Positions 13,147 to 15,300 of a stretch of 51,707 nucleotides of DNA are shown here, in pieces (the stretch's first letter is position 1; every line of letters starts with the position of its first letter). Both the position numbers and the translations under genes were made by a program. Under the pieces are notes generated by a model. It had not been told where the DNA came from and made no database searches. It worked only from the letters and a program-made list of their open reading frames with translations. Source of the DNA: Spirirestis rafaelensis WJT71-NPBG6 (GTDB lineage Bacteria; Cyanobacteriota; Cyanobacteriia; Cyanobacteriales; Nostocaceae); the NCBI GenBank assembly GCA_019359015.1, contig JAHHID010000054.1, positions 1-51,707 of the forward strand, read 5' to 3'.

Positions 13147-13264
13147 GCCCCCGTGGACGAAGGGTTAGTCGCTGCTCTTTCAAAGGGGAGATTGCGAGTA
13201 CTCTTCTCCTGTCGGAGACGCTGCGCGAACGAGAACGCTCCGCGAACAAATCTCGTCGGGGGAA
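13147..13264 (+). tRNA. tRNA-Glu(TTC) interrupted by a 47-nt repeat in the T-loop
   Basis: Removing 13200-13246 gives a standard tRNA: D-stem GAC/GTC with GG in its loop, anticodon TTC, 5-nt variable region and T-stem GCGAG/CTCGT. The insertion lies between T54 and C56 of the T-loop and is identical to the one in tRNA-Gly at 15184-15300. Mismatches G1-A72 and G29-G41 suggest decay. Probably non-functional unless the insert is tolerated or removed. Confidence 0.7.
13200..13246 (+). repeat. Small dispersed repeat inside tRNA-Glu
   Basis: 47 nt with a TCTCC-TGTC-GGAGA hairpin core. It is identical to 15236-15282 and shares its first 34 nt or so with 3914-3947. It occupies the place of T55 in the T-loop. 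Confidence 0.85.
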
Positions 13265-13271
13265 TGATTCT

Positions 13272-13352
13272 GGGTCGGCTCGTCTATTGGTGCGGGCAGC
13301 GCTCTGTAAAAGCGTCCTTTGTTGGTTGTAGGTTCAATTCCTGCCCGACCCA
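13272..13352 (+). tRNA. tRNA-Tyr(GTA)
   Basis: Acceptor GGGTCGG/CCGACCC, anticodon loop CTGTAAA (GTA), a 12-nt variable region fitting a bacterial class II tRNA-Tyr, T-loop TTCAATT and discriminator A. The D-arm pairs less clearly. Confidence 0.78.
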
Positions 13353-13356
13353 TTAC

Positions 13357-13462
13357 GGAGAAGTGGCTGAGTGGCTGAAAGCACTCCTCTGCTAAGGGAG
13401 AGCGGTTTAACGACCGTCGCAGGTACCCTTCGGGAAGCAAGCTACAAATCCTGTCTTCTCCG
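13357..13462 (+). tRNA. tRNA-Ser(GCT) interrupted by a 20-nt repeat in the T-loop
   Basis: Acceptor GGAGAAG/CTTCTCC, anticodon loop CTGCTAA, a long variable arm containing AGCGGTTTAACGACCG, and discriminator G, all as for tRNA-Ser. The T-stem GCAGG/CCTGT encloses T, then a 20-nt insert at 13425-13444, then CAAAT. The insert again replaces T55. Confidence 0.75.
13425..13444 (+). repeat. 20-nt hairpin repeat inside tRNA-Ser
   Basis: ACCCTTCGGGAAGCAAGCTA, with a CCC-TTC-GGG hairpin, resembles another abundant small dispersed repeat of Nostoc-type genomes. It is different in sequence from the 47-nt repeat but placed at the same tRNA position. Confidence 0.75.
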
Positions 13463-13466
13463 TTTT

Positions 13467-13540
13467 GATCGCGTGGTGTAACTGGATAACATCTGAGTCT
13501 ACGAAACTCAAGACTGAAGGTTCAAATCCTTCCGCGATCG
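13467..13540 (+). tRNA. tRNA-Arg(ACG)
   Basis: Perfect acceptor stem GATCGCG/CGCGATC, anticodon arm TGAGT-CTACGAA-ACTCA, T-loop TTCAAAT and discriminator G. The 3' acceptor strand lies in a HIP1-like sequence. Confidence 0.92.
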
Positions 13541-13549
13541 CCTTACATG

Positions 13550-13617
13550 GGAGAGGTGATGGAGTGGCTGATTCATGTTGAATTCAAGCAGTCCACTGGG
13601 TAAAACCCATCTCTCCT
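13550..13617 (+). tRNA. Degenerate tRNA-like unit
   Basis: Acceptor stem GGAGAGG/TCTCTCC is intact and a D-loop GG is present. The anticodon region (13574-13594) does not form a 5-bp stem with a 7-nt loop, and the T-loop is reduced to TAAAA on a 4-bp stem. The anticodon cannot be assigned. Probably a pseudogene. Confidence 0.5.
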
Positions 13618-13624
13618 TCTTTAT

Positions 13625-13699
13625 CCCCCGGTAGCTCAGTTGGTAGTTAGCGCCTGTCTGAAGAACAGGAGGTCGTCGGTTCGATTCCGACCTGGGGGG
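13625..13699 (+). tRNA. tRNA-Phe(GAA)
   Basis: Anticodon arm CCTGT-CTGAAGA-ACAGG, T-arm GTCGG-TTCGATT-CCGAC, acceptor CCCCCGG/CTGGGGG. The D-loop is one nucleotide longer than usual and the discriminator is G rather than A. Confidence 0.85.
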
Positions 13700-13705
13700 C
13701 TTCGT

Positions 13706-13780
13706 TGCCCCATAGCTCAATGGTAGAGCAAGCGGCTGTTAACCGCGAGGTTGTAGGTTCGAGTCCTACTGGGGCAGCCA
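13706..13780 (+). tRNA. tRNA-Asn(GTT) with encoded CCA
   Basis: Acceptor TGCCCCA/TGGGGCA, anticodon loop CTGTTAA, T-loop TTCGAGT, discriminator G. It is followed directly by CCA, the only unit of the array with an encoded CCA. Confidence 0.9.
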
Positions 13781-13790
13781 TTTATTTCAT

Positions 13791-13863
13791 TGCCGGGTGG
13801 ACGAATTGGCAAGTCACATCGCTCTGAACGATGAGGTTACAGGTTCAAACCCTGTCCCGGCAT
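13791..13863 (+). tRNA. tRNA-Gln(CTG)
   Basis: Acceptor TGCCGGG/CCCGGCA, anticodon arm CATCG-CTCTGAA-CGATG (CTG), T-loop TTCAAAC. CUG-reading tRNA-Gln is often absent from cyanobacterial core sets, so it may broaden decoding. Confidence 0.88.
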
Positions 13864-13867
13864 TTAT

Positions 13868-13940
13868 TGGGGAGTCGCCTAACGGTATGGCACCGCTCTT
13901 TGAAAGCGGCAAAATGGAGGTTCGATCCCTCCCTCCCCAG
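13868..13940 (+). tRNA. tRNA-Gln(TTG)
   Basis: Acceptor TGGGGAG/CTCCCCA, anticodon arm CCGCT-CTTTGAA-AGCGG, T-loop TTCGATC, discriminator G. It follows tRNA-Gln(CTG) by 4 nt. Confidence 0.92.
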
Positions 13941-13968
13941 TTCTGCTTTCATAAAGCAGCTAAATTAA

Positions 13969-14043
13969 GCCCCTGTAGCCCAATTGGAAGAGGCTCTAAG
14001 CTTAGAACTTAGATGTTTACTGGTTCAAGTCCAGTCAGGGGTA
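13969..14043 (+). tRNA. Class I tRNA with TAG anticodon
   Basis: A well-paired cloverleaf with anticodon arm CTAAG-CTTAGAA-CTTAG, T-arm ACTGG-TTCAAGT-CCAGT and acceptor GCCCCTG/CAGGGGT. UAG should read Leu CUA codons, but tRNA-Leu normally has a long variable arm and this one has only about 6 nt. The aminoacylation identity is therefore unclear. Confidence 0.75.
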
Positions 14044-14146
14044 TTGGTGATATCGCTCTTGATGGAGCAACAGTGGCTCGCTACTGCTCATAACCTGAAC
14101 ATCAGCAGGTGCAATTCCAGCAGTAACGCCACCAACTGTCACCAAA
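14044..14146 (+). tRNA. Degenerate or expanded tRNA-like unit
   Basis: A perfect 7-bp stem TTGGTGA/TCACCAA bounds 103 nt. A GCTC/GAGC D-arm without GG and a T-arm-like hairpin with loop TGCAATT are present. The anticodon hairpin CAGT/ACTG has an 8-nt loop, and about 17 extra nt lie between T-arm and acceptor. An alternative acceptor would end at 14134. The anticodon cannot be assigned. Confidence 0.4.
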
Positions 14147-14153
14147 AAAGTGT

Positions 14154-14227
14154 GCTGGTGTAGCTCAATCTGGAAGAGCAACCGCCTTGTAAGCGGTAGG
14201 TTGCAGGTTCAATTCCTGTCACCAGCT
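14154..14227 (+). tRNA. tRNA-Thr(TGT)
   Basis: Acceptor GCTGGTG/CACCAGC, anticodon arm ACCGC-CTTGTAA-GCGGT, T-arm GCAGG-TTCAATT-CCTGT, discriminator U. Confidence 0.92.
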
Positions 14228-14289
14228 CTAGAATCTCGCCATTTGCGTGCGGCTATGCCAAATTTATGTAGTCGATTGAGGAGTGTAAT

Positions 14290-14925
14290 ATGACTGTAAT
14301 AACTGTTACTGATGCTCTGGCAGAGTTAACATTGTTGCAAAAGCGGATTGAATCGGCAAGAGCGGCTTTAGAAAAGGGTAATTTGATAACTGTTGTTGAA
14401 GTCGGCAAAGTGCCCACTGGCTTTAAATCGAGAGAGGAGTATGAAGTCAATGCTAAGGCACTTGTACAAAGAGTTCAGGCATTGCTTGATAGAAGACGAG
14501 CTATCAAAAGAGCGATCGTGGTTTCCAATGCTTCTACTCGCGTGACAGTTGCAGGAGACGAGATGACAGTTGCAGAGGCGATTGAAATGAAAAATTTCAT
14601 TGCGTATTACGAGGCAATTCTCGATACTATGCAGTCAGCTTACACTCAAACTCGCAGTCAATATGAGAAAGCGCAGGCGAAAATTAAAGAAAGACTGGAT
14701 AAACTTGCTTTAGAAGTTCTGGGAAAAAATGAAGCTATAAATTCTGAGCAATATCAATCTTTAGTTGATAGCTTTATGGCAAGAGAAGGTGTGGAATTGC
14801 TCGATCCAACTAATATCTCTAAAGAAATTGAAAGACGAATGATATTTATTGAAGAGTTCAAATCGACATGCGATCGCGTACTTTCTATCAGCAATGCCAC
14901 GACAATGGTAGAAATCCCAGATTAG
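14290..14925 (+). CDS. Helical protein encoded inside the tRNA array (phage-like)
   Basis: 211 residues, almost entirely helical and charged, with probable coiled coils at about 5-30, 55-70 and 110-150. The segment STRVTVAGDEMTVAEAIEMKN, a short beta hairpin followed by a helix, recalls uncharacterised proteins of large phages as I remember them. It has no nuclease, synthetase or RNA-modification motif. The ATG is preceded by a GAGGAG-type Shine-Dalgarno (about 14277-14282). It lies on the same strand as the tRNAs, 62 nt after tRNA-Thr, so it is probably part of the array transcript. A phage origin would fit a mobile tRNA array, but this is inference. Confidence 0.7.
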   Translation: MTVITVTDALAELTLLQKRIESARAALEKGNLITVVEVGKVPTGFKSREEYEVNAKALVQRVQALLDRRRAIKRAIVVSNASTRVTVAGDEMTVAEAIEMKNFIAYYEAILDTMQSAYTQTRSQYEKAQAKIKERLDKLALEVLGKNEAINSEQYQSLVDSFMAREGVELLDPTNISKEIERRMIFIEEFKSTCDRVLSISNATTMVEIPD

Positions 14926-14958
14926 AATAATACTTGCTGGTCACTCGAAAATCTCTGA

Positions 14959-15131
14959 ATTTATGGATTGCCTGAAAAGGCAACGAACTTAGGATTCGTC
15001 TCTAACTTTAAAGCTCAAAGGTTAACGCTCATCGCTTAAACCTTAACGCTCAAAGTTTAACTTGTTAAAGTTCAAATTTTAAAGTCTAAAGTTCGATGAA
15101 ATCCAGGAACTTGGTTTAGGTTCCATAAAGC
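14959..15131 (+). tRNA. tRNA-Leu(TAG) with heptameric repeats in the variable region
   Basis: Acceptor strands TTTATG/CATAAA (14960-14965 and 15124-15129) pair over 6 bp. The D-arm is TGCC-TGAAAA-GGCA, without GG. The anticodon arm ACGAA-CTTAGGA-TTCGT at 14983-14999 carries TAG and G37, as in tRNA-Leu. A T-arm GAACT/GGTTC lies at 15107-15123 with loop TGGTTTA. Between anticodon and T arms lie about 107 nt built of 7-nt units. The assignment is tentative. Confidence 0.45.
15001..15098 (+). repeat. Degenerate heptamer tract
   Basis: Reads as successive 7-nt units such as TTTAAAG, CTCAAAG, GTTAACG, CTCATCG, CTTAAAC, CTTAACG, CTCAAAG, TTTAACT and TTCAAAT, interrupted by one 8-nt unit. The periodicity matches the STRR repeats of heterocystous cyanobacteria. 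Confidence 0.7.
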
Positions 15132-15140
15132 CTTGAGGTT

Positions 15141-15183
15141 TCCACCTGGCTGAGTGGTCAGCATTTTTAAATCTTTCAACTAT
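15141..15183 (+). tRNA. 5' half of a broken tRNA
   Basis: A D-arm-like GCTG-AGTGGT-CAGC with GG lies at about 15149-15162. It is followed by an A/T-rich stretch without a normal anticodon arm or T-arm before tRNA-Gly begins. Probably a remnant. Confidence 0.3.
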
Positions 15184-15300
15184 GCAGGTCATATGTGACG
15201 GTGCCATGTGAGTCTTCCAAACTCTTGGCACGAGTACTCTTCTCCTGTCGGAGACGCTGCGCGAACGAGAACGCTCCGCGAACGAGCCTCGTCATTCGCT
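15184..15300 (+). tRNA. tRNA-Gly(TCC) interrupted by a 47-nt repeat in the T-loop
   Basis: Without 15236-15282 the unit has an anticodon arm TGAGT-CTTCCAA-ACTCT (TCC), a D-loop with GG, a perfect T-stem ACGAG/CTCGT and discriminator U. The insert sits between T54 and C56, exactly as in tRNA-Glu. Two acceptor mismatches (A3-C70, C7-C66) suggest decay. Confidence 0.62.
15236..15282 (+). repeat. Small dispersed repeat inside tRNA-Gly
   Basis: 47 nt, identical base for base to 13200-13246, at the homologous position in another tRNA. Confidence 0.85.

What the first reader, a model, noticed from the sequence alone, without database searches (positions are those of the whole stretch)
13200..15282. 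Hairpin repeats inserted at the same nucleotide of the T-loop in three tRNA genes
tRNA-Glu (insert 13200-13246), tRNA-Ser (13425-13444) and tRNA-Gly (15236-15282) each have an intact T-stem whose loop reads T54, insert, C56. U55 is gone and an A...A-bounded hairpin repeat sits in its place. Two inserts are identical 47-mers and the third is a different 20-nt repeat. So two repeat families chose the same position in three unrelated tRNA sequences. Small dispersed repeats (SDR) of Nostoc-type genomes are known and have been proposed to move through RNA. Position-specific entry into tRNA elbows would point to a mechanism that recognises the folded RNA or the conserved TTCRA sequence.
Basis: partly seen in the sequence, partly recalled or inferred. 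Interest (0 to 1): 0.92.

Follow-up and report, generated by a model that had tools for sequence, protein, structure and literature searches.

The report
Tiny DNA hairpins inserting in tRNA T-loops
In cyanobacteria of the Nostoc family, very small two-hairpin DNA repeats have inserted again and again at the same letter of the T-loop of spare tRNA genes, which makes the T-arm of a tRNA gene a natural target of some very small mobile DNA.

Summary
In 100 tRNA-array regions (99 fetched from Nostocaceae plus the window) I curated 168 T-loop inserts in 75 regions: 74 genomes, 16 genera, 30 tRNA types, 95 distinct inserts. All end in A before C56, and 166 start with A in place of base 55. The window's tRNA-Ser is 86 of 86 identical to an empty copy in a same-genus genome. 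The 47-mer reads as nested: a 23-mer with a 24-mer in its TT^CG loop. The elements are two-hairpin, SDR-like repeats that follow one junction rule, T^[N...A]^C. By hand tally 22 of 24 inserts at other tRNA sites follow it on the strand opposite to the tRNA, so folded-RNA recognition is unlikely. Sequence alone is not enough: 168 of 2102 TTC T-loops carry an insert, but none of 756 GTTCRA sites outside tRNAs did. There was no gene-conversion signal. Most likely this is DNA-level insertion at TTC, strongly favoured in T-arms; the enzyme is unknown, and a hairpin at non-T-arm targets was tested and not found. SDRs are known; I found this tRNA hotspot in no paper I could search.

The parts
13147..13266 (+). 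tRNA-Glu(ttc) of the array, split in the T-loop
   Evidence: T-stem GCGAG/CTCGT and acceptor GCCCCCG/CGGGGGA pair across the insert; 58 of 72 flanking bases match intact tRNA-Glu of L092
13200..13246 (+). 47-nt nested insert replacing base 55: outer 23-mer ACTCTT..CGAGAACGCTCCGCGAA
   Evidence: outer type alone in T-loops of other genomes (L061, L105, L110)
13206..13229 (+). inner 24-mer CTCCTGTCGGAGACGCTGCGCGAA in the TT^CG hairpin loop of the outer element
   Evidence: core present 41 times in the genome; left flanking T in all 30 loci read (the right C is part of the search pattern)
13356..13462 (+). tRNA-Ser(gct) of the array, split in the T-loop
   Evidence: Rfam tRNA 41.3 bits over 13357-13462; 86 of 86 flanking bases identical to the intact gene in G078/L066
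13425..13444 (+). 20-nt insert ACCCTTCGGGAAGCAAGCTA replacing T55
   Evidence: same element class in T-loops of other genomes
15185..15303 (+). degenerate tRNA-Gly(tcc), split in the T-loop
   Evidence: 55 of 69 flanking bases match intact tRNA-Gly of L126
15236..15282 (+). second, identical 47-nt nested insert (inner 24-mer 15242-15265)
12741..15906 (+). tRNA array (trn operon type): 16 tRNA genes by ARAGORN plus split and degenerate ones
   Evidence: homologous arrays in Nostocaceae
3919..3942 (+). another copy of the inner 24-mer, flanks CTCTT^CGAGAG, outside tRNAs
11016..11534 (+). HNH endonuclease gene upstream of the array (Pfam HNH_5, HNH); candidate partner only
   Evidence: same-strand HNH gene near the array in 75 of 86 assessable regions, no link with insert number

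Best explanation
The inserts are non-autonomous mobile DNA repeats of the SDR type: mostly 19-32 nt, form T^[N-hairpin1-A-hairpin2-A]^C. They insert as DNA where a strand offers TTC (rarely ATC), the second T being replaced by the element's own first base (usually A), with no target duplication. The T-arm of a tRNA gene (5-bp stem, loop TTCRANN) is by far the favoured target, probably because the DNA arm can extrude as a stem-loop that shows TTC unpaired. The elements' own TTC loops are further targets, which gives nested inserts such as the 47-mer. Dispensable tRNA arrays tolerate and so record the hits. Shown: junction rule, T-loop hotspot, both strands used at other tRNA sites, nesting pattern, no gene-conversion signal. 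Inferred: need for T55 (from closest intact relatives), the extruded DNA stem-loop, and an unidentified strand-cutting enzyme (HUH-, integrase- or HNH-like).
For: 174 of 216 split-tRNA candidates from BLAST fit T54^insert^C56, 168 after curation. A scan by stem pairing, blind to position, left 122 interrupted candidates; 95 of 122 match the consensus for 'base 55 replaced' in 6 of 6 positions, and 3 of the 122 fit a clean insertion after T55 in 7 of 7. Empty site for the window's Ser gene. Of 208 element copies in the 100 regions, 166 lie in T-arms by rule; of 19 'spacer' hits 16 read by eye as T- or D-loops of tRNAs that ARAGORN missed, 1 as a tRNA 3' end, 2 (L119) as neither, although spacers offer 2274 TTC sites. 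168 of 2102 TTC T-loops vs 0 of 756 GTTCRA sites outside tRNAs (P 1e-23) and vs 21 inserts at 4031 other TTC sites in tRNAs (P 9e-57). All 168 have TTC in the closest intact relative, against 107 TGC T-loops in the set (P 3e-4); Glu-ctc, 57 of 60 TGC, has none. 22 of 24 other tRNA inserts are antisense (hand tally). Identical inserts in different tRNAs: 6 of 181 pairs within an array vs 73 of 2596 between arrays, P 0.97 for an excess. Two hairpins in 64 of 77 single elements vs 10.6% of shuffles. The position is also hit in T-arms of tRNA-like tandem genes (L173, L180, L182).
Against: A hairpin at the target is not general: at 40 distinct non-T-loop sites the stem around the cut is no longer than at 5368 control TTC sites (mean 2.83 vs 2.79 bp, P 0.48), so 'stem-loop' may give way to 'tRNA gene' or transcription as the extra cue. 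Searched without flanks, the 20-mer has 134 matches in 53 genomes; of 30 loci read only 10 are in T-arms. TTC in anticodon loops (882 sites) is hit about 10 times only. No transposase is identified; transposition was never observed. The element library was drawn from T-loop inserts. Inheritance by descent inflates raw counts; 97 genus x tRNA x class combinations is only a proxy for events. Base 55 is lost, so its earlier identity is inferred.
Confidence: 0.6

Rival explanations
1. RNA-level entry: element RNA is ligated or reverse-spliced into the folded tRNA elbow and the chimera is copied back into DNA.
For: T-loops are hit about 15 times more per TTC site than other tRNA sites (168 of 2102 vs 21 of 4031); tRNA-like tandem genes show the same position; the replaced base is the Psi55 position (recalled).
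Against: 22 of 24 non-T-loop inserts in tRNA genes are antisense and keep the T^...^C junction on the non-tRNA strand. Outside T-loops the left T is present at 38 of 40 sites, and for the 20-mer searched without flanks both T and C at 26 of 30 loci. SDR5 entry into HIP1 fits too (PMC4390886 passage).
Confidence: 0.13
2. Uniform insertion at any TTC, with selection removing all but T-loop inserts because only these leave a usable tRNA.
For: The tRNA body is well kept: 104 of 164 T-loop-inserted tRNAs keep every stem pair. The 40 Rfam tRNA hits outside the window's contig have ordinary lengths, though that search could miss interrupted genes.
Against: Spacers should tolerate inserts, yet hold 2 or 3 of these for 2274 TTC sites. 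Anticodon-loop inserts, which should stop decoding, persist with all stem pairs in 6 of 8.
Confidence: 0.13
3. One or a few founding T-loop inserts spread between tRNA genes by recombination through the shared T-arm sequence.
For: The window's Glu and Gly genes carry the same 47-mer, not seen in the other 28 of 30 loci read from its genome (41 matches); this pair is not among the 181 tested, as the Gly gene was not in the set.
Against: No excess of identical inserts inside an array (6 of 181 vs 73 of 2596; permutation mean 9.5, P 0.97). Antisense and non-tRNA sites follow the same junction rule.
Confidence: 0.1
4. Site-specific recombination of single-stranded hairpins (integron attC-like or REP/RAYT-like) with the T-arm as the accepting site.
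For: Two-hairpin elements; all 168 end in A before C56, so the complementary junction reads G^T; classes ending ..CTA give a GTAG tag there; T-loops are recalled as crossover places of tRNA-integrating islands.
Against: No integrase or RAYT gene was searched for; the GCGAA class gives GTTC, not GTAG; loss of one target base is not expected of conservative strand exchange.
Confidence: 0.15

Closest known systems
Small dispersed repeats (SDR) of Nostoc, Elhai et al. 2008 (paper not held; recalled, and cited in passages seen)
   Same: Tiny dispersed repeats in the same organisms with precise insertion. SDR5 enters HIP1 between bases 3 and 4 (PMC4390886 passage), that is GCG^ATCGC, on the other strand AT^CGC: the T^C junction seen here.
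   Different: Here a strong hotspot in tRNA T-loops, replacement of one target base and nesting in the elements' own loops are measured over 16 genera. Whether Elhai 2008 mentions tRNAs I could not check.
REP / REPIN elements and RAYT tyrosine transposases (PMC3116915, PMC3733652; passages seen)
   Same: Small palindromic repeats thought to be non-autonomous; PMC3733652 lists GTAG families in filamentous cyanobacteria.
   Different: Only the classes ending ..CTA give GTAG at the junction; the passages seen mention no tRNA T-loop entry; no RAYT gene was searched.
Genomic islands that use tRNA genes as attachment sites (recalled)
   Same: T-arm DNA as a preferred, conserved integration target.
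   Different: Those restore the tRNA, carry att duplications and an integrase; these are about 20 nt, carry no gene and leave the loop interrupted.
trn operon (26 tRNA genes) of Anabaena sp. PCC 7120 (PMC10272220, 12 passages seen)
   Same: Same kind of array: silent, stress-induced, on a megaplasmid.
   Different: The passages seen describe no insert; the words 'insertion' and 'T-loop' do not occur in the text. The delta plasmid accession I tried was not in the collections.

Membership tests
SDR (Nostoc small dispersed repeats) | dispersed, repeated, very short (about 21-26 nt, recalled) | tested here: met
   26-nt core 41 times in the own genome; 149 of 168 T-loop inserts are 19-32 nt
SDR (Nostoc small dispersed repeats) | precise insertion shown by empty sites | tested here: met
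   Ser empty site 86 of 86; further filled/empty pairs; one target base is replaced for A-first elements
SDR (Nostoc small dispersed repeats) | SDR5 junction in HIP1 (GCG^ATCGC) | tested here: inconclusive
   GAT^CG inserts at L081, L112, L100 have that junction, in sequences that are not all full HIP1; that they are SDR5 is not shown
SDR (Nostoc small dispersed repeats) | match to a published SDR consensus | not testable with these tools
   Elhai 2008 not held
REP/RAYT | GTAG tag at one end | tested here: not met
   met by classes ending ..CTA, not by the class ending ..GCGAA (25 of 168)
REP/RAYT | cognate RAYT gene in the genome | not tested
   no search made
tRNA intron (spliced) | insert leaves both exons complete | tested here: not met
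   base 55 replaced: T54-[A...A]-C56 in 166 of 168
tRNA-integrating island | attachment-site duplication and integrase gene | tested here: not met
   inserts of 19-111 nt, too short for a gene; no duplication at the Ser empty site

The most novel reading that the evidence does not exclude
Nostocales have an unknown DNA-mobilising activity that recognises extruded T-arm-like stem-loops with TTC in the loop and pastes in gene-less two-hairpin units of about 20 nt, exchanging one base. tRNA T-arms are its natural homing site, many units bring a new homing site in their own loop, and the stress-inducible tRNA array with its neighbouring HNH endonuclease is its reservoir.
Probability: 0.28. Interest if true: 0.88.

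Novelty: new variant of a known kind. Interest (0 to 1): 0.77.

Why it matters
How gene-less elements of about 20 nt can move is, as far as I know, unexplained. This gives a strong, countable target (the T-arm), a one-base junction rule and clean empty/filled pairs, so the activity could be assayed in vitro or with a plasmid trap. It also shows that many array tRNA genes of Nostocaceae are interrupted and missed by ARAGORN, which matters for reading the stress-induced trn operon.

Tried and rejected
Rejected: misalignment (the position-blind scan, gives the same place). Rejected as sole cause: TTCRA sequence, tolerance, gene conversion. Tested and negative: hairpin loops at non-T-loop targets; link between HNH gene and insert number (1.7 vs 1.9 per array). 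RNA minimum-energy folds of the window's Ser and Glu genes with insert are not cloverleaves, so I make no claim that these tRNAs work. TGC loops as scars was dropped: they sit almost only in Met and Glu-ctc, over 13 genera. YrlA hits near the tRNA-like array are below the gathering score and run across unit borders.

Curation: one search gave 174 T-loop rows; 6 were dropped as parse errors (4 Glu-ctc anticodon-loop cases, L157, L144) and 3 trimmed (L109, L093, L072), giving 168. The window's Gly gene is not among them (its 5' half is too diverged for the search). Further T-loop cases seen by eye (e.g. L103, L119, L121, L122, L132, L155, L158) were not added. The 24 non-T-loop inserts are a hand tally: Phe anticodon loop 7, Ser-tga D-loop 6, Arg-acg 6, Leu-tag 2, Arg-tct 2, L120 (tRNA-Gly 3' end) 1; 21 at TTC, 3 at ATC; L101 has G for the right C; several are surely shared by descent. 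'0 of 756' rests on reading the non-T-arm list; copies in unmasked DNA that read as T-arms of missed tRNAs were counted as T-arms. In one search the last T of the empty site was supplied by me for the 20-mer sites and the right C lies in the pattern of the 24-mer sites, so the independent figures are: left T 38 of 40, right C 18 of 20 (20-mer sites). The 45-79 nt repeats in Glu-ctc anticodon loops and the 47-48 nt ones in Thr-tgt belong to other families and are not counted.

Ten literature searches gave no paper on T-loop inserts in cyanobacterial tRNAs; Elhai 2008, Puerto-Galan and Vioque 2012, Santamaria-Gomez 2021 and Tran 2016 were not read (the second was not looked up by id) and might mention one.
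Full report
1. What is there. The window belongs to a Nostocaceae genome and holds a tRNA array at 12741-15906, of the type of the trn operon of Anabaena PCC 7120 (PMC10272220, passages). Three array genes carry an insert at exactly T54^C56 with base 55 gone: Glu 13200-13246, Ser 13425-13444, Gly 15236-15282. The tRNA-Ser is 86 of 86 identical to the uninterrupted gene of same-genus genome G078; the only difference is T55 against the 20-mer. 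The 47-mer reads as nested: 23-mer ACTCTT^CGAGAACGCTCCGCGAA with the 24-mer CTCCTGTCGGAGACGCTGCGCGAA at its TT^CG loop. The core of the 24-mer matches 41 times in the genome.

2. How general. All 217 Nostocaceae genomes searched match part of the array (single tRNAs match too); I picked 99 of the stronger places by hand, fetched them and used them with the window. ARAGORN gives 2106 tRNAs in these 100 regions. A BLAST split search gave 216 candidates, 174 of them T54^C56; after curation 168 in 75 regions, 74 genomes, 16 genera, 30 tRNA types, 95 distinct inserts, 97 genus x type x tail-class combinations. A scan using acceptor and T-stem pairing, blind to position, left 122 interrupted candidates, 95 with the full consensus for 'base 55 replaced'. 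Named examples: Nostoc sp. PCC 7524 plasmid pNOS7524.01 has five of the curated inserts, Nostoc sp. TCL26-01 pTCL26-01_A four, CENA543 none. In 388 genomes of the order a T-loop-type pattern matched 32, including other families; of 8 loci read, L267 and L268 lie in tRNA arrays, L269-L271 in non-tRNA hairpins of about the form GGGG-TTCGATG-CCC, and L272-L274 in neither.

3. Anatomy. 149 of the 168 inserts are 19-32 nt, the longest 111. Of 77 distinct ones up to 32 nt, 64 hold two perfect hairpins with varied stems (CCC/GGG, CTC/GAG, TCTCC/GGAGA; CGC/GCG, GGC/GCC, AGC/GCT) against 10.6% of shuffles. General form: T^[N-hairpin-A-hairpin-A]^C; 166 of 168 begin with A, all 168 end with A. Nested inserts sit in TTC-type loops of earlier elements.

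4. Rule and target. The junction rule holds on either strand. Other tRNA sites: Phe anticodon loop, Ser-tga D-loop, Arg-acg, Arg-tct and a tRNA-Gly 3' end, antisense, and Leu-tag, sense: 22 of 24 antisense (hand tally). For the 20-mer searched without flanks, left T and right C both hold at 26 of 30 loci read. SDR5 entry into HIP1 as cited in PMC4390886 is the same junction on the other strand. Rates: TTC T-loops 168 of 2102; other TTC sites in tRNAs 21 of 4031; GTTCRA outside tRNAs 0 of 756. All 168 have TTC in the closest intact relative, while 107 intact T-loops read TGC; since base 55 is lost, this is inference. Among 208 copies of the elements in the 100 regions, 166 are in T-arms by rule. 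In 53 genomes of one genus a pattern for the 20-mer with GT...CRA flanks matched 48 times, against 134 without flanks; of 32 of the 48 read, 27 have a T-stem of at least 4 pairs, 2 are degenerate Ser T-arms, 3 lie in a palindromic repeat; 3 of the 27 are in T-arms of tRNA-like tandem genes. Of 30 read without flank condition, 10 are in T-arms.

5. Against my reading. Outside T-arms the cut is not preferentially in hairpin loops (P 0.48), so the stem-loop part of the model rests on T-arms, tRNA-like T-arms, nested loops and a few palindromes. TTC-bearing anticodon loops are hit less than T-loops. No enzyme is known. Counts include inheritance by descent. Stem conservation in inserted tRNAs (104 of 164 with all pairs) does not show function, since anticodon-loop-inserted genes keep their stems too (6 of 8).

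6. Mechanism. I judge DNA-level insertion most likely, with T-arm DNA favoured as an extruded stem-loop and the array as a tolerant recorder. RNA-level entry is disfavoured by antisense inserts, selection alone by the nearly empty spacers, gene conversion by the lack of within-array identity (6 of 181 vs 73 of 2596). An HNH endonuclease gene precedes the array in the window (11016-11534) and is near it in 75 of 86 assessable regions (14 more had too little upstream DNA); it is a candidate nuclease with no evidence beyond position.

7. Place among known things. The elements meet the SDR traits I could test; the published consensus could not be compared. They are not spliced introns, not islands, and only partly REP-like. 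New here is the measured T-loop hotspot with its one-base rule; the listed searches found no paper on it, but key older papers were not available.

Noticed in passing
L173:1380-2260 (minus), L180, L182; module CTTGCCTGNAAAGGCCGACGA in 42 of 53 genomes of one genus: Tandem array of tRNA-shaped genes (D-arm, T-arm, acceptor) whose anticodon arm is replaced by a conserved module of roughly 60 nt; some units carry the 20-mer in the T-loop. May be an undescribed tRNA-like RNA family.
   Followed up: partly
window 11016-11534; 75 of 86 assessable array regions: HNH endonuclease gene near the tRNA array on the same strand; in Nostoc sp. HK-01 (L264:2109-2666) the protein carries an in-frame extra stretch that looks like a short repeat insertion.
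   Followed up: partly
T-loops of Glu-ctc (57 TGC, 3 TTC) and Met-cat (49 TGC, 59 TTC) in the array regions: T-loops read TGC: base 55 is G instead of the usual U55, in 13 genera.
   Followed up: partly
Glu-ctc anticodon loops, e.g. L076, L099, L105; Thr-tgt in L063, L074: Other repeat families (45-79 nt and 47-48 nt) inserted at one place of an anticodon loop and near the D-arm in several genomes.
   Followed up: no
window 12816-12883: Apparent degenerate tRNA-Glu(ctc) between Asp and Cys that has lost part of its anticodon arm (read by eye).
   Followed up: no
L096, L062, L122, L157: T-loop inserts nested two or three deep; in L096 elements sit in both hairpin loops of an earlier element.
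   Followed up: no
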